Assembly: GCA_905478555.1 (NCBI GenBank)
Contig: CAJQIZ010000019.1
Location: forward strand, 1-57,133
DNA from: an uncultured Flavobacteriales bacterium
GTDB lineage: Bacteria; Bacteroidota; Bacteroidia; Flavobacteriales; BACL11
Direction of reading: 5' to 3'
DNA length: 57,133 nt
The translations under genes and the position numbers were made by a program. Below, one piece after another: positions 41,509-48,188 of this stretch (the stretch's first letter is position 1; every line of letters begins with the position of its first letter). Under the pieces are notes generated by a model. The model was given only the letters and a program-made list of their open reading frames with translations, was not told where the DNA came from and made no database searches.

Positions 41509-42423
41509 ATGATTCAAAAGATAATTCTAAAAATTAGAAGTAGCTATTCTTTCCTTAAGCAAGAGAGGGAGATTAGGAGATCAATTGATATTGATATTTC
41601 TGATATTAAAACAATTTGCTTAGTATTTGGACCGTATAGAAACCTTACTTCTTTGTCAGCTGCTATGGCAGTATTACACCCTAATTGTCAGGTTTTAAAT
41701 CACGCTCAAAGAAGAATACTTCCTCATAAAAAAGTAAACTTTTTTATGAGGTACTCTGAAACTAGATTTAATAGCTTTATTAAATATGCTATTCATCTTT
41801 CTCTTTCAGGTAAAAGAGGATTAGTAGGCGGGAGTGTTTTACATTCTCACGCTTTCGATAAGTTAGATGTAAAAGAGAAATATAAAAACCGTTTTGGAGA
41901 TAAGTTACTAAAAGATAAGATTAATTGTTTATTCTGGAAGGAAGGATTGCATTTGCAAAATCATTTTTTAGAAAATAATATTAATACTATAGATTTAATA
42001 AATAAAAATAAGAAGATAGTTTTTATTTTACCAATTCGTAACCCTTTAGATTGCGCTATGTCGAATCAGAATACAGGAATGTCAAATATTTTTCATCAAA
42101 TAAATCCTAATTCTACATATCAGGAAATTCTAAAATCCATATTAGATGATTTTTTATTTTTCTTCAATAATCAGAAACAATTGTCCTCTAATTTCTTTCA
42201 TTACTACCAACATTCATTTAGCGAATCTACATTAAAAGAATTTTGCAATTATTTAGATCTCCCCTTTGATGAAAGGTGGAAGAATGATGTTTTAGATATT
42301 TATAATATAAAGGATTCTTATCCACATAAAAAAGAGGATATAGATTTTTATGAAGAATATGTCTCTACTAAATTTAAGGATTTTCCTGATGAAATGGAGA
42401 AATTATTACAATTTATAAAGTAA
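41509..42423 (+). CDS. Sulfotransferase-like protein
   Basis: 304 residues, soluble. A first beta-strand/loop ICLVFGPYRNLTSLSAAM sits where sulfotransferases have the PAPS 5'-phosphate loop, and IVFILPIRNPLDCAMSNQN matches the 3'-phosphate site (R-N-P-x-D-x-A-x-S). Length agrees with bacterial sulfotransferase-like families. The loop (GPYRNLTS) is not the standard P-K-S-G-T-T, so catalytic activity is uncertain. Starts 26 bases after a strong terminator, so it must have its own promoter. No glycan genes follow. Confidence 0.5.
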   Translation: MIQKIILKIRSSYSFLKQEREIRRSIDIDISDIKTICLVFGPYRNLTSLSAAMAVLHPNCQVLNHAQRRILPHKKVNFFMRYSETRFNSFIKYAIHLSLSGKRGLVGGSVLHSHAFDKLDVKEKYKNRFGDKLLKDKINCLFWKEGLHLQNHFLENNINTIDLINKNKKIVFILPIRNPLDCAMSNQNTGMSNIFHQINPNSTYQEILKSILDDFLFFFNNQKQLSSNFFHYYQHSFSESTLKEFCNYLDLPFDERWKNDVLDIYNIKDSYPHKKEDIDFYEEYVSTKFKDFPDEMEKLLQFIK

Positions 42424-43018: not shown

Positions 43019-44914
43019 TTAGTATGATCTTTGATTATTCCCTTCTATATAGTTCATAAAAGCTTTGTTTACTACCTTTACTCCTCCTGGTGTTGGGTAA
43101 TTTCCTGTAAAGTACCAATCTCCTTTATGGTCAGGACAAGAAGCATGTAAATCAGAAATAGATTGATATATTATTTCTACTTCAGCATTAGTTCCTTTTG
43201 GAGTTAGAAGTTCACTTATTTTAACTGAAATTTCTTCTGCAGAAAACGGTTTGTAAATATCTTGAACATAATTTACCATTTCTTCTTTTGGTAAATGAAC
43301 TTGTGACTTACATTTATTATACGTTTCAGTAAGAATGTGTTCTTGTTTTGTATCTTTTAATAACTCTACAGCTGCATTAAAGGCAATAAAATCACCCATT
43401 TTTGCCATATCAATTCCATAACAATCAGGATATCTGATTTGTGGAGCGGAAGAGACTACTACAATTTTTTTAGGGCTTAATCTATCTAGTATTCTTATAA
43501 TAGATTGTTTCAAGGTAGTTCCTCTTACAATACTGTCGTCAATCATAACTAGGTTGTCAGTAGGTTTTACGGTACCGTAAGTAACATCATAAACATGAGC
43601 AACTAGGTCGTCTCTACTGTCATCAGAAGTAATAAAGGTTCTTAGTTTAGCGTCCTTTATTGCAATCTTCTCTGCCCTTGGAGATATCTCCATTATTTTT
43701 GCTATTTCATCATGACAAGGTTTTGATCCTAGTTCCTGAATCTTTTTAGTTTTTATTTTATTTAAATAAGAATGACATCCTTTTAACAATCCAAAATAAG
43801 AAACTTCAGCTGTGTTTGGGATGTATGAGAATACTGTATTTCTCACATCATTATCAATAGATTCTAATACCTTTGCGAAAATTCGTTTACCAAGCTCTAA
43901 CCTTTCATTATAGATGTCTTTATCATTTCCTCTAGAGAAATAGATACGCTCAAACGAACAAGCTTTTCTTTCTAAAGGTTCTCTCACTTGTTTTTCCTTA
44001 ACAGTACCATCTTTCTTTATGATAAGTGCATGACCTCTTTTTATCTCTTTTACATCATCAATATCTACATTAAATGCAGTTTGTATTACAGGTCGTTCAG
44101 AGGCAACAACTACTATCTCATCATCTTTGTAATAATAGGCTGGTCTAATTGCGTTTGGGTCTCTCAGTGCAAAAGCATCTCCATGTCCCATTAATCCACA
44201 CATCACATATCCTCCATCCCAATATTTAGCGGATTGAGTTAATATATCTTGTAGGTCTAACTCCTTTTCAATTACTTTTGTAATCTCTTTTTTACTAAAA
44301 TTATCTTTATTTTTGTAGTAAATTTCATCATTTGCCTCATCTAAAAAATGACCAATTTTTTCTAAAATAGTTACGGTGTCAGCCATTTGTTTTGGGTGCT
44401 GACCTAAATCTACTAACTGATTGAAAAGTTCATCCACATTTGTCATATTGAAGTTTCCTGCCAATACCACATTTCTTGTTTTCCAGTTACTTTGTCTTAA
44501 AAAGGGATGACATTGTTCAATTGTATTTTCTCCAAATGTTCCGTACCTTAAATGTCCTAAAAATAACTCTCCTGTAAATGGTAGGTTTTCCTTCATCCAT
44601 TTTGGGTCCTTTAATTTTTCAGGATCACTTTCTTCTAGTTCTACAAACCTTCTGTTGACTTGTTTAAAAACATCTTGTATAGGGTTTGTTGCTACTGATC
44701 TCTTTCTACTAATATATCTTTTTCCTGCTTTTACATCTAACTTTACATTTGCTAAACCAACACCATCTTGTCCTCTATTGTGTTGTTTTTCCATTAATAA
44801 ATACATTTTATTTAATCCGTAAAGGGATGTTCCGTATTTTTTTTGGTAAAACTCTAAAGGTTTTAGCAATCGTAACATTGCTACTCCACATTCGTGCTTA
44901 ATTGAATCGCTCAT
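43019..44914 (-). CDS. purF: Amidophosphoribosyltransferase-type protein (PurF family, 631 residues)
   Basis: Class II glutamine amidotransferase fused to a phosphoribosyltransferase. The catalytic Cys is C9 in KHECGVAML, with GHLRYGTFGENT and LAGNFNMTNVDELF in the glutaminase domain; PRPP binds at LVMIDDSIVRGTTLKQSI; IRYPDCYGIDM follows. Family function: first step of purine synthesis, PRPP + glutamine to phosphoribosylamine. At 631 residues it is the long Bacteroidota form, with extra sequence between the domains and at the end. It lies 34 bases after the glutaredoxin gene and has a TACTTTTG box (near 44930), so it may be separately transcribed. A shorter canonical PurF elsewhere in the genome is possible. 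Confidence 0.9.
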   Translation of the reverse strand: MSDSIKHECGVAMLRLLKPLEFYQKKYGTSLYGLNKMYLLMEKQHNRGQDGVGLANVKLDVKAGKRYISRKRSVATNPIQDVFKQVNRRFVELEESDPEKLKDPKWMKENLPFTGELFLGHLRYGTFGENTIEQCHPFLRQSNWKTRNVVLAGNFNMTNVDELFNQLVDLGQHPKQMADTVTILEKIGHFLDEANDEIYYKNKDNFSKKEITKVIEKELDLQDILTQSAKYWDGGYVMCGLMGHGDAFALRDPNAIRPAYYYKDDEIVVVASERPVIQTAFNVDIDDVKEIKRGHALIIKKDGTVKEKQVREPLERKACSFERIYFSRGNDKDIYNERLELGKRIFAKVLESIDNDVRNTVFSYIPNTAEVSYFGLLKGCHSYLNKIKTKKIQELGSKPCHDEIAKIMEISPRAEKIAIKDAKLRTFITSDDSRDDLVAHVYDVTYGTVKPTDNLVMIDDSIVRGTTLKQSIIRILDRLSPKKIVVVSSAPQIRYPDCYGIDMAKMGDFIAFNAAVELLKDTKQEHILTETYNKCKSQVHLPKEEMVNYVQDIYKPFSAEEISVKISELLTPKGTNAEVEIIYQSISDLHASCPDHKGDWYFTGNYPTPGGVKVVNKAFMNYIEGNNQRSY

Positions 44915-44948
44915 TGATTTGATTTTGGATGTACAAAAGTAGGTTTAA

Positions 44949-45179
44949 TTATTTGATAATTTTCATCAATCCACTGATTCCTGGATTGGTATAAATTACT
45001 CCTTCTATATCTAAAGTTGGTATAATTCTTTTCCCATTATTTACCTTTTCTAGAAAGTCAATTGCTTCCTGATTATCAGTAATTATAATATATTCAAATT
45101 CAAATCCTTTTTCTTCTAAAAATCTTTTTGTTGTCACGCAATCCGAACACCAATCTGCACCATATACTTTAATATTCAT
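44949..45179 (-). CDS. Glutaredoxin/mycoredoxin-like protein
   Basis: 76 residues with a thioredoxin fold: MNIKVYGADWCSDCVTTKRFLEEKG, CxxC motif at residues 11-14, a conserved GKRIIPTLDIEG with the cis-Pro, and YTNPGISGLMKII. Catalyses thiol-disulfide exchange in the cytoplasm. It overlaps the end of the 92-residue gene by 11 bases, so it belongs to the same transcript as the decarboxylase cluster. Confidence 0.88.
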   Translation of the reverse strand: MNIKVYGADWCSDCVTTKRFLEEKGFEFEYIIITDNQEAIDFLEKVNNGKRIIPTLDIEGVIYTNPGISGLMKIIK

Positions 45180-45447
45180 AGTTTGTAGTTTTAAAAGTTA
45201 TTATTGTTCCGTTTTGTATTATATTACATTCCTTACAATGTGAAATATATGTAAATTCGTAATCTTTATTTATATCAAAATTTGTATCTGTTGTAAATAT
45301 CCTGTCACATTCTAGTTTACCTTTTTCTGAGTATCTTTTTATTCTGAATGCTCTTTCTTCTTCTTCTTCTTCAGTGATTTCAAACCATGAACTAGAAAGT
45401 CCTTTTAATAATTGAGCTTTTTCAGATATGTTTTTAGGTTTACACAT
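45169..45447 (-). CDS. 92-residue protein of unknown function
   Basis: Starts MCKPKNISEKAQLLKGLSSSW, then a very acidic run FEITEEEEEERAF, a basic strand RIKRYSEKGKLECDRIF, and a C-terminal half with HCKECN (a possible metal-binding pair). The start is ATG at 45447; the in-frame TTG at 45459 is not needed. It overlaps the second papain-like paralog by 8 bases and the glutaredoxin by 11. Cytoplasmic. No family recognised; I can only describe it. Confidence 0.6.
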   Translation of the reverse strand: MCKPKNISEKAQLLKGLSSSWFEITEEEEEERAFRIKRYSEKGKLECDRIFTTDTNFDINKDYEFTYISHCKECNIIQNGTIITFKTTNYEY

Positions 45448-46138
45448 TTTCTTTTTCAATGTCGATAAAATAGGCTTTTATCTTATTTCTTGTTATTTTA
45501 ATACAGCTATTATATTCTACTTTATAAAAATTCGAGTTAGAGATGGAAATATTTCTCTTTGGGGACGGTGTGATGTTTGCTTGTATCTTTAATCTGCATC
45601 TTTTATAAATAGAAACCCCAGATTTACGAATAATTTTAGATACAAAACGAGAACAATTAGATCCTTTTCTAACAAAAGGTCCATAGGAAATTGCTCCTTT
45701 TTCTTGCATTTGTTTTGCAAAACTAAATGATTGGTTAAAATTTATCCCACTTAATACTGATGCGTAAAGTACACCCTCACCATGCGTTGCTTCATTATTA
45801 GCAATTTCTATCAATATATCATTTATGTTAGTTATGTTATCATGTTTAATTTTTGCTAGTATAGATATTCCAATTTCTGGGTCTGTTTCCGCATCTCTGA
45901 CTCTTCCAAAATCAACTGGAGTTTGATATCTTCCAAAATCCATATAATGTAATTTATTAGTTTCCGAGTTTACAAGGATTAGTGCAGAATGGCCTACTCT
46001 ATATTGTCCATTTTTTGAAAGTTTTCTGCGAGGGGTATAACGTAGGATTCTCAAAAGTAAAGAATCATACCACGCATTAGCTGATTCCACCATCCCTTCT
46101 GGCCATGCTAAAGTTATTATGAAATCTGAATTTTTCAT
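45440..46138 (-). CDS. Permuted papain-like (NlpC/P60-like) protein, paralog 2
   Basis: 232 residues without a signal peptide, homologous to the upstream gene. The shared opening is SDFIITLAWPEG, then RVGHSALILVNSETNKLHYMDFGRY (candidate catalytic His), GRVRDAETDPEI, THGEGVLYASVLSGI, and SNCSRFVSKIIRKSG with the candidate nucleophile Cys. His before Cys fits circularly permuted papain folds such as YiiX/LRAT-like proteins (inference). A basic extension after residue 185 (LKIQANITPSPKRNIS) is missing from its paralog. Also longer after Trp-Tyr-Asp (TPRRKLSKNGQ). It lies 13 bases after paralog 1, and overlaps the 92-residue gene. Confidence 0.65.
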   Translation of the reverse strand: MKNSDFIITLAWPEGMVESANAWYDSLLLRILRYTPRRKLSKNGQYRVGHSALILVNSETNKLHYMDFGRYQTPVDFGRVRDAETDPEIGISILAKIKHDNITNINDILIEIANNEATHGEGVLYASVLSGINFNQSFSFAKQMQEKGAISYGPFVRKGSNCSRFVSKIIRKSGVSIYKRCRLKIQANITPSPKRNISISNSNFYKVEYNSCIKITRNKIKAYFIDIEKENV

Positions 46139-46151
46139 TGGTGCAATAATA

Positions 46152-46748
46152 CTATTTAATTTTTATATTTTCAAAATAGAATAATATTGATATTTTTTTT
46201 ATTAATGGTATTCTAAGTAATAAATCATTAACTATTACTTTTATTTTCTCTGTACTACTTCCTGTTGATTTTTTTATAATTTCATACACGAATCTTCCGC
46301 AATTTAAAGATTTATTAGAAAAAGGACCAAAAGAAATAAATTTACTATCTTGTTGTTTTTTTGCATATTCTATTCCTTCACTAGCATTAATGTTGTTTAA
46401 TACTTTGTAATATAGTGTTCCTTCTCCATATGTTGCTTTGTTTTCCGCAATTTCTAATATAATATTAGAAAGGTTTATAATTTTATTATTTTGAATTATA
46501 GCTAAGTGTTTTATATTTAATTTAGGGTCTGTTTTATAGTTACGAACCCTACCTGTTCCGTTAGGTGTGTCATATCTACCAAAGTCATAATAGTATACTT
46601 TTTTGGTAAGGGAATTTATAAGTATTACAGCTGTGTGTCCAATTTTGTATTTTCGGTTTAATCCTAAGATTTTATCGTACCAAGATCCAACGGATGCTAT
46701 TTTACCTTCCGGCCATGCTAGTGTAATTATAAAATCAGAGTTTAGCAT
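46152..46748 (-). CDS. Permuted papain-like (NlpC/P60-like) protein, paralog 1
   Basis: 198 residues, no signal peptide. It shares with the next gene SDFIITLAWPEG, KIGHTAVILINSLTKKVYYYDFGRYDTP, GRVRNYKTDP, TYGEGTLYYKVLNNI and NCGRFVYEIIKKS, so the candidate His-Cys pair is conserved. The two are a tandem duplication with roughly 40-50% identity by eye. It starts 7 bases after the decarboxylase stop, so it is clearly co-transcribed. Function unknown; a cysteine hydrolase or transferase acting on an amide is possible. Confidence is high for the gene, low for the function. Confidence 0.65.
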   Translation of the reverse strand: MLNSDFIITLAWPEGKIASVGSWYDKILGLNRKYKIGHTAVILINSLTKKVYYYDFGRYDTPNGTGRVRNYKTDPKLNIKHLAIIQNNKIINLSNIILEIAENKATYGEGTLYYKVLNNINASEGIEYAKKQQDSKFISFGPFSNKSLNCGRFVYEIIKKSTGSSTEKIKVIVNDLLLRIPLIKKISILFYFENIKIK

Positions 46749-46755
46749 TTAATAA

Positions 46756-48126
46756 TTACTCAACATTATTTTCTGTAAATGATTCTAATATTTTAAAGAA
46801 ATTTAAAATATTCTCTGATGTATTTTCTCTATTTATGGTTACAAGTCTAATAAACGTTTCTCCTTTATGTTCTCCGTAACCAACCATTAGTTTATTTTTA
46901 AGATATAAATCTGTGCACAATTTTTTAGGATCTAGATCTTTGTAATTAAAACAAATAGAGAGGCTATTGTCAAAACTATAAATTGTATAATCACTATTAT
47001 TTTTAATATATTTTCTAGCAGTATCTGCTAAAGAGTAACTGTGATCTACCATTTCAGATATTCCTTTTGTTCCTAATGATTTCCAGAGTGTCCAGAATTT
47101 TAACGCGTTATTTCTTCTACCGCATTCAAATGATGTTTGACCTAAATTATACTCATCATTATCTGTTTGATAGAGGTAGTTTGCTTTATTACTAAATGAA
47201 TTAAGTAGATTCCCACCTTCCTTTACTAATAATATAGATGTTGATATGGGGGTACCTAATGTCTTATGAGGGTTGAAACAGAAAGAATCAGAAAGTTCTA
47301 TTCCTTCTACTAAATGTTTGTATTTCTCTGAAAATATAAGACTACCTCCATAAGCCCCATCTAAATGTAGCCAAATATTATATTTTTTACAGATTTCGGC
47401 AATCTCTATAATTGGATCGATTGCTCCCATGACAGTTGTTCCTATTGTAGCATTTATAAAAAATGGGGTTAGTCCGTTTTTAATATCCTCTTCTATTTGA
47501 ACGGTTATTTCAGAAGAGATCATTTCTCCTTTCTTATTAGTATCTATGTATCTTACATTATCTCTACCAATTCCTGAAAAAGATGCGTTCTTATCCATGG
47601 AGTAATGAGAGCTTCTAGAACTGTAACATATTAGTTTATTGCTGTCTCCACTATATTTTGATTCCGGATTTTTTTTATCTCTAGCCATGACCAATGCCAT
47701 AAAATTACTCATACTTCCACCGGTGGGTATAGTACCTGCTGATGTTTCTGGATAGGATATCATTGCGGCAATTTTTCGTATAATTTCTTTTTCTATTTCT
47801 ACCATTGGTCCTGAAATTTTATAGGTAGCCATACTATTATTTAAAATAACGGCTAATAGATCACCTAATACAGCTTTACTATTAAGTCCTCCGAATAGTT
47901 GATTAAAGAATAAATTCCCACTTGTTTTGGGAGTATTAAGAATTAAATGATTTAATGATTCTTTTAATTCTTCATCCGAAATAGGATTTTCTTTTAAAGA
48001 AATATTAAATATTTTTAGTAGCTCGTTAGGATCAATTTGATTTACAACTCCTCTTTCTTCATCCTTTATAAGAGATTGTGCCAGAGAATTGAAAATATTT
48101 AGATCATTAGATAGTTTTTCTGACAT
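46756..48126 (-). CDS. Pyridoxal-phosphate-dependent decarboxylase (group II)
   Basis: 456 residues of the aspartate/glutamate/diaminobutyrate decarboxylase family. Seen are SAGTIPTGGSMSNFMAL (PLP phosphate), SSHYSMDKNASFSGI, IGTTVMGAIDPI, WLHLDGAYGGSLIF (Asp contacting the PLP nitrogen), and the PLP Lys in FCFNPHKTLGTPIS, where HKTLG replaces the usual HKW. Tail residues include a PLP-domain helix RNNALKFWTLWKSLG. It catalyses removal of the alpha-carboxyl of an amino acid; the substrate cannot be assigned. First gene of the minus-strand cluster, divergent from the CotH gene; a palindrome lies in the shared upstream region. Confidence 0.9.
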   Translation of the reverse strand: MSEKLSNDLNIFNSLAQSLIKDEERGVVNQIDPNELLKIFNISLKENPISDEELKESLNHLILNTPKTSGNLFFNQLFGGLNSKAVLGDLLAVILNNSMATYKISGPMVEIEKEIIRKIAAMISYPETSAGTIPTGGSMSNFMALVMARDKKNPESKYSGDSNKLICYSSRSSHYSMDKNASFSGIGRDNVRYIDTNKKGEMISSEITVQIEEDIKNGLTPFFINATIGTTVMGAIDPIIEIAEICKKYNIWLHLDGAYGGSLIFSEKYKHLVEGIELSDSFCFNPHKTLGTPISTSILLVKEGGNLLNSFSNKANYLYQTDNDEYNLGQTSFECGRRNNALKFWTLWKSLGTKGISEMVDHSYSLADTARKYIKNNSDYTIYSFDNSLSICFNYKDLDPKKLCTDLYLKNKLMVGYGEHKGETFIRLVTINRENTSENILNFFKILESFTENNVE

Positions 48127-48150
48127 TTTTTATTTGATTTATTTTTTTTG

Positions 48151-48158
48151 CAAAACTA
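48151..48158 (-). promoter_or_regulatory. -7 promoter box of the decarboxylase cluster
   Basis: TAGTTTTG on the minus strand, 25 bases before the ATG at 48126. It overlaps the left end of the palindrome at 48156-48188. No clear -33. Confidence 0.45.
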
Positions 48159-48188
48159 TAAAATAAGATTAATAATCTCTATTTATAG
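48156..48188. promoter_or_regulatory. 33-base imperfect palindrome in the divergent promoter region, candidate operator
   Basis: CTATAAAATAAGATTA (48156-48171), one central A, then TAATCTCTATTTATAG (48173-48188). The inner 13 bases AGATTA-A-TAATCT are a perfect inverted repeat and 13 of 16 arm positions pair. It touches the decarboxylase -7 box and lies 50 bases upstream of the CotH promoter. A half-site-like AAGATTATAAT recurs near 48220. Confidence 0.45.

What the first reader, a model, noticed from the sequence alone, without database searches (positions are those of the whole stretch)
43019..48188. Conserved-looking cluster: PLP decarboxylase, two tandem papain-like paralogs, a 92-residue acidic protein, glutaredoxin and PurF-type protein
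Seen: six minus-strand genes with gaps or overlaps of only a few bases from the decarboxylase to the glutaredoxin, a tandem duplication with conserved candidate His and Cys, no signal peptides (so cytoplasmic), and a palindrome at the promoter. Known: group II PLP decarboxylases yield amines or beta-alanine, permuted papain folds act on amides or thioesters, and glutaredoxins are redox partners. Inference: an enzyme set that makes or modifies an amine-linked compound, with the duplicated papain-like proteins as hydrolase or transferase. PurF may only be a neighbour, because it has its own promoter-like box. I know no description of this set as a system.
Basis: partly seen in the sequence, partly recalled or inferred. 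Interest (0 to 1): 0.62.

Follow-up and report, generated by a model that had tools for sequence, protein, structure and literature searches.

The report
Vitamin-B5 decarboxylase beside DUF6695 enzyme
In a family of small marine Flavobacteriales, a decarboxylase that seems to have been converted from taurine synthesis to making beta-alanine for vitamin B5 shares an operon with a split DUF6695 (TseH-like) cysteine enzyme that, in other Bacteroidota, sits beside TANGO2, the homologue of a human disease protein that binds acyl-CoA.

Summary
The genes are real and correctly placed. The two papain-like proteins belong to PF25218 (TseH/DUF6695), and the 92-residue protein is the detached C-terminal half of the same protein (PF20405). 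So this is one split enzyme plus an extra N-terminal copy, which exists in few genomes and is broken in both relatives that carry it. Decarboxylase-DUF6695N-DUF6695C-(glutaredoxin)-PurF is conserved across the family. Decarboxylase-DUF6695 pairs also occur in 10 of 38 sampled loci elsewhere in Bacteroidota, with a separate decarboxylase clade. Outside the family, the closest decarboxylases lie next to cysteine dioxygenase (14 of 16 loci), so they look like taurine-pathway enzymes. In the window's family, cysteine dioxygenase (0/20) and pyruvoyl PanD (0/51) are missing, PanC is kept (42/51), and the decarboxylase carries three family-specific substitutions. Best reading: it now makes beta-alanine for pantothenate/CoA. 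DUF6695 is a TseH-fold cysteine enzyme, probably an acyl hydrolase or transferase; its usual partner elsewhere is TANGO2, which is absent where the decarboxylase is the partner (29 of 30 genomes tested). No T6SS sheath gene was found. Not established: the substrate of DUF6695, and whether it acts on the decarboxylase's product.

The parts
46756..48126 (-). Group II PLP decarboxylase (PF00282), 456 aa; Schiff-base Lys288 in NPHK, pocket Phe78 after FNQL, family-specific Ala100, Glu334, Asn340; proposed aspartate 1-decarboxylase
   Evidence: only PF00282 protein above cut-off in the genome
46152..46748 (-). Extra copy of DUF6695 N-terminal (TseH-like, PF25218) domain, 198 aa; dyad His38/Cys150 intact, C-terminal ~30 residues lost, fast evolving (end branch 1.34 against 0.28)
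45440..46138 (-). DUF6695 N-terminal (TseH-like, PF25218) domain, the conserved copy, 232 aa; His50, Asn161-Cys162, Arg164
45169..45447 (-). DUF6695 C-terminal domain (PF20405), 92 aa, start overlaps the end of the preceding gene by 8 bp
44949..45179 (-). Dithiol glutaredoxin/mycoredoxin-like protein, CSDC motif at 11-14; missing in some genera of the family
43019..44914 (-). PurF-type class II glutamine amidotransferase/phosphoribosyltransferase, conserved neighbour with its own promoter box
48127..48188 (-). Promoter region of the decarboxylase operon; TAnnTTTG (TAGTTTTG) 32 bp upstream of the ATG; imperfect palindrome here is not conserved

Best explanation
A family-wide operon encodes (1) a PLP enzyme that decarboxylates L-aspartate to beta-alanine, replacing the lost pyruvoyl PanD, so that PanC can make pantothenate and then CoA, and (2) a split DUF6695 protein: a TseH-fold permuted NlpC/P60 cysteine enzyme (Cys162 nucleophile, His50 base) plus its all-beta C-terminal domain, which most likely transfers or hydrolyses acyl (ester, thioester or amide) groups in the cytoplasm. 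(3) The glutaredoxin probably serves thiol reduction. Shown by computation: family membership, fold, operon conservation, loss of PanD and cysteine dioxygenase with PanC kept, adjacency of cysteine dioxygenase to the sister decarboxylases, family-specific substitutions, repeated pairing of DUF6695 with decarboxylases or TANGO2. Inferred: the substrate aspartate (about 0.7), acyl chemistry for DUF6695 (about 0.5), a shared CoA or acyl-CoA context for the two (about 0.25).
For: Closest solved structures are GADL1, CSAD and GAD. The pocket residue after FNQL is Phe/Tyr (31/5 of 37; Trp in 1), as in CSAD/GADL1 and unlike Ser in GAD (PMC7367687). PanD 0/51 in the family against 179/245 elsewhere in the order; PanC 42/51; PanC without PanD in 42/42 PanC-bearing family genomes against 4/182 outside; decarboxylase in 41/51. 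Cysteine dioxygenase 0/20 in the family but next to the orthologous decarboxylase in 14 of 16 loci outside it. Y100A, Q334E and D340N separate the family from the dioxygenase-linked enzymes. Precedent: a PF00282 protein complements E. coli panD (PMC10102598). DUF6695 model pLDDT 91; TseH Z 18.6, 2.7 A over 171 residues, next best Z 6.3. TseH shows phospholipase activity in one of two assays (PMC12994826). Decarboxylase directly upstream of DUF6695 in 10 non-family loci; TANGO2 upstream in 16 others, never both; TANGO2 absent from 20/20 family and 9/10 other decarboxylase-DUF6695 genomes.
Against: The PanD and dioxygenase losses are probably one evolutionary event, so the counts are not independent. 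Phe78 suits cysteine sulfinate as well as aspartate. Ten family genomes, mostly incomplete, show no decarboxylase, five of them with PanC. Other beta-alanine routes were not excluded. Six of ten non-family decarboxylase-DUF6695 genomes still have PanD, so that pairing is not simply PanD replacement. No substrate evidence for DUF6695, and TseH was inactive in the other phospholipase assay.
Confidence: 0.6

Rival explanations
1. The decarboxylase is still a cysteine sulfinate decarboxylase making hypotaurine as an antioxidant or osmolyte, with the glutaredoxin as redox partner.
For: Sister enzymes lie beside cysteine dioxygenase; Phe78 is CSAD-like; DUF6695 loci elsewhere often include peroxiredoxin, YceI and an ECF sigma factor.
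Against: No cysteine dioxygenase in 20 family genomes; beta-alanine would then have no known source although PanC is kept; family-specific substitutions at otherwise conserved sites.
Confidence: 0.15
2. A dedicated amine-modifying system: the decarboxylase makes an amine (such as beta-alanine) and DUF6695 acylates it or hydrolyses an amide of it.
For: DUF6695 sits next to two separate clades of group II decarboxylase and, in another family, next to an unrelated Orn/DAP/Arg-type decarboxylase; permuted NlpC/P60 relatives include acyltransferases (PMC12994826).
Against: Most DUF6695 loci have no decarboxylase neighbour (11 of 58 have the group II one); one genus of the family (g4) and the BACL11-like genomes keep both genes but kilobases apart; no product known.
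Confidence: 0.2
3. DUF6695 here is a toxin-type effector (TseH-like, T6SS) and its operon neighbours are incidental.
For: Pfam names the family after TseH, and the TseH clade has conflict contexts (PMC12994826).
Against: No TssC/VipB in 42 genomes with the gene; near-universal retention at one syntenic site in the family; no toxin or immunity partner seen beside it.
Confidence: 0.05

Closest known systems
PLP aspartate 1-decarboxylases replacing PanD (PanP of Vibrio, MfnA of Thermococcus, DVU0867 of Desulfovibrio)
   Same: PF00282 enzyme in genomes lacking pyruvoyl PanD but keeping pantothenate synthesis; DVU0867 complements E. coli panD (PMC10102598)
   Different: PanP profile TIGR03799 far below cut-off (129 against 606 bits); this enzyme groups with CSAD/GADL1 and its nearest relatives sit in taurine-pathway loci
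Cysteine sulfinate decarboxylase / GADL1
   Same: closest solved structures, Phe/Tyr specificity residue
   Different: no cysteine dioxygenase in the genomes; Tyr-to-Ala at position 100, Q334E, D340N
TseH / DUF6695 (permuted NlpC/P60)
   Same: profile, fold, His/Cys dyad
   Different: no T6SS; split C-terminal domain; operon with a decarboxylase
DinB-TANGO2-DUF6695 operons of Bacteroidota (seen here)
   Same: same DUF6695 protein, partner gene directly upstream on the same strand
   Different: upstream partner is TANGO2, not the decarboxylase

Membership tests
PF25218 TseH / DUF6695 | profile score over curated cut-off | tested here: met
   138.5 and 157.5 bits against 27
PF25218 TseH / DUF6695 | conserved catalytic His and Cys | tested here: met
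   G49-H50 and N161-C162 invariant across 25 to 33 sequences
PF25218 TseH / DUF6695 | TseH fold | tested here: met
   Z 18.6 to 6v98, 171 residues, 2.7 A
T6SS effector | T6SS in the genome | tested here: not met
   TssC/VipB PF05943 in 0 of 42 genomes; a divergent T6SS was not tested
DUF6695 C-terminal domain PF20405 | profile score over curated cut-off | tested here: met
   88.8 against 25 bits
Group II PLP decarboxylase PF00282 | profile and PLP lysine | tested here: met
   267 bits; Lys288 in NPHK
Glutamate decarboxylase (animal type) | Ser in the side-chain pocket after FNQL | tested here: not met
   Phe78
PanP equivalog TIGR03799 | curated cut-off | tested here: not met
   129 against 606 bits
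Cysteine sulfinate decarboxylase pathway | cysteine dioxygenase in the genome | tested here: not met
   0 of 20 family genomes
Functional PanD replacement | PanC kept, PanD absent | tested here: met
Functional PanD replacement | aspartate decarboxylase activity / panD rescue | not testable with these tools
   needs enzyme assay

The most novel reading that the evidence does not exclude
DUF6695 is a cytoplasmic acyl-CoA or pantetheine-linked cysteine enzyme of Bacteroidota whose operon partner alternates between TANGO2 (an acyl-CoA binder) and a beta-alanine-forming decarboxylase, so that both partners belong to one CoA/acyl-CoA pathway and TANGO2's bacterial function could be read from it.
Probability: 0.18. 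Interest if true: 0.78.

Novelty: new variant of a known kind. Interest (0 to 1): 0.5.

Why it matters
It suggests how a widespread group of marine Flavobacteriales makes vitamin B5 without PanD: a taurine-pathway decarboxylase appears to have changed substrate when cysteine dioxygenase and PanD were lost, with three candidate residues to test. It also gives DUF6695, known mainly as a toxin relative, a non-toxin setting, and shows that in Bacteroidota its upstream neighbour is often either TANGO2 or a decarboxylase. That is a concrete lead on TANGO2, whose molecular role is disputed and whose loss causes human disease.

Tried and rejected
Two-paralog system: rejected, second copy limited to the genus and broken in both relatives that carry it. 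Operator palindrome: not conserved. Independent 92-aa protein: rejected, it is the C-terminal half of DUF6695. Glutamate decarboxylase: pocket Ser absent. T6SS effector: no TssC. Phylum-wide sampling of DUF6695 found only 11 of 395 genomes, too few for context counts. First collection search with a broad alignment failed for lack of a conserved stretch. The 470-aa enzyme beside DUF6695 in f8 has no Pfam, NCBIfam or PDB sequence match. The C-terminal beta domain gave only weak structural matches, best Z 3.7. Agnello 2013 on the selectivity motif was not held.

Full report
Observation. The six minus-strand genes are present at the stated coordinates, with gaps or overlaps of +7, +13, -8, -11 and +34 bases. 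Pfam and NCBIfam place them as PF00282 decarboxylase, two PF25218 (TseH-like) proteins, PF20405 (DUF6695 C-terminal domain), a dithiol glutaredoxin with CSDC, and a PurF-type protein below the purF cut-off.

One enzyme, not three components. In Flavobacteriaceae and other families PF25218 and PF20405 form one protein of roughly 316-390 aa; in the window's family (f1) they are separate overlapping genes, and split and fused forms occur across Bacteroidota. The 92-aa protein is therefore the detached C-terminal half. Outside the window genome a second PF25218 copy was found only in G151 and G189, both the same genus and both broken. The window's first copy keeps His38 and Cys150 but has an end branch of 1.34 against 0.28 for the conserved copy. 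It looks like a decaying duplicate.

Conservation. Decarboxylase-DUF6695N-DUF6695C-(glutaredoxin)-PurF, flanked by the same large surface-protein gene and (usually) the same S46 peptidase gene, recurs across f1, which consists of marine Flavobacteriales MAGs and single cells including 'Cryomorphaceae BACL11'. Glutaredoxin is missing in some genera, and in genus g4 and the BACL11-like genomes the decarboxylase lies kilobases away. Across the order 72 of 296 genomes have DUF6695 and 58 have the decarboxylase. Outside f1 only 5 genomes have both (28 and 17 carriers among 245; Fisher p=0.03, not corrected for relatedness). A wider collection search, however, showed the decarboxylase directly upstream of DUF6695 in 10 of 38 further loci: mostly Bacteroidales or unplaced Bacteroidetes MAGs, plus one labelled Draconibacterium, one Flavobacteriales and one labelled Chlorobi. 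That sample was chosen by similarity to the f1 protein, so the fraction may be inflated. Those decarboxylases form a clade separate from that of f1 (100% SH-aLRT), and on the DUF6695 tree the pairing needs six changes, so it arose or was lost more than once.

Decarboxylase substrate. The nearest solved structures are GADL1, CSAD and GAD. The residue after FNQL, Ser in GAD, Tyr in GADL1 and Phe in CSAD (PMC7367687; the mapping onto FNQL is mine, from the alignments), is Phe78 here. In f1 it is Phe in 31, Tyr in 5 and Trp in 1 of 37, so a short acidic substrate is expected. Outside f1 the sister enzymes lie next to cysteine dioxygenase in 14 of 16 loci, often with a sodium:solute-symporter-like gene (the dioxygenase is identified by the PF05995 coordinates against those, the rest by clustering; the transporter assignment is by eye), which marks them as cysteine sulfinate decarboxylases. 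In f1 no dioxygenase was found in 20 genomes and no pyruvoyl PanD in 51, but PanC is in 42 and the decarboxylase in 41. Outside f1 only 4 of 182 PanC genomes lack PanD. The window genome has no other PF00282 protein above cut-off. Three positions differ between f1 and both other groups: Y100A, Q334E, D340N; position 100 is aromatic in GADL1, CSAD and GAD as well. The simplest account is that the f1 ancestor lost the dioxygenase and PanD, and that the decarboxylase took over beta-alanine synthesis. A PF00282 enzyme doing this job has been shown by E. coli panD complementation in Desulfovibrio (PMC10102598). These losses are probably one event, so the counts show consistency, not replication.

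DUF6695. The predicted structure (pLDDT 91) matches TseH at Z 18.6 over 171 residues, far above the next matches, viral 2A, PPPDE/DeSI and human CLN5 at Z 5.7-6.3. The fused homologue model (pLDDT 92) adds an all-beta C-terminal domain with no clear match. PMC12994826 places TseH/DUF6695 in the permuted NlpC/P60 group with LRAT, YiiX and DUF4105, and reports phospholipase activity of TseH in one of two assays. No T6SS TssC was found in 42 genomes.

Partners elsewhere. Among 58 loci outside f1: TANGO2 sits directly upstream in 16, mostly with a DinB-family gene before it; the group II decarboxylase is a neighbour in 11 (directly upstream in 10); no locus has both. Six loci in family f8 have an unassigned 470-aa protein and an Orn/DAP/Arg-type decarboxylase downstream. 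YceI, a tRNA_anti-like protein, a peroxiredoxin, an ECF sigma factor and a zf-HC2 protein recur nearby, suggesting a stress-responsive operon. Genome-wide, TANGO2 is absent from 20/20 f1 genomes and 9/10 other decarboxylase-DUF6695 genomes. Human TANGO2 binds acyl-CoA (PMC11867700). Beta-alanine feeds pantothenate and CoA (established pathway knowledge). A shared CoA or acyl-CoA role is therefore attractive but untested; I give it about one in five.

Promoters. The palindrome at the decarboxylase promoter was not found in relatives; a TAnnTTTG box at about -24 to -35 is common, and PurF has its own box in the window and about half of the relatives. PurF is best regarded as a syntenic neighbour.

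Limits. Nearly all family genomes are MAGs or single-cell assemblies; absences rest on profile searches; trees used the quick method; substrate assignments are inference.

Noticed in passing
L036:2480-3282 (G151) and L038:8725-9345 (G189): Broken remnants of the extra DUF6695N copy in two relatives of the same genus: one without the active-site Cys region, one with several stops.
   Followed up: yes
L155, L161, L169, L170, L172, L174, L176, L180, L182, L184, L186, L187, L188: Conserved DinB-TANGO2-DUF6695 gene order in diverse Bacteroidota, often with YceI, tRNA_anti-like protein, peroxiredoxin, ECF sigma factor and zf-HC2 protein.
   Followed up: partly
L060, L061, L062, L064, L066, L069: DUF6695 followed by a 470-aa protein without Pfam, NCBIfam or PDB sequence match and an Orn/DAP/Arg-type decarboxylase in family f8.
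   Followed up: partly
L193-L200, L203-L208: Cysteine dioxygenase beside an acidic-amino-acid decarboxylase, often with a symporter-like gene: a likely bacterial taurine-synthesis locus in Flavobacteriales.
   Followed up: partly
L132:9181-11078: The PurF-like gene is split into two open frames in a BACL11 genome (frame shift or assembly error).
   Followed up: no
window 41509-42423 (+): 304-aa protein between the PurF-like gene and the S46 peptidase has no Pfam match.
   Followed up: no
L178 (record titled Saccharospirillaceae): Split DUF6695 of Bacteroidota type on a contig labelled gammaproteobacterial: horizontal transfer or misbinned contig.
   Followed up: no
G000:C42:555-1238: Second PurF-like stretch in the genome, also below the purF cut-off.
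   Followed up: no
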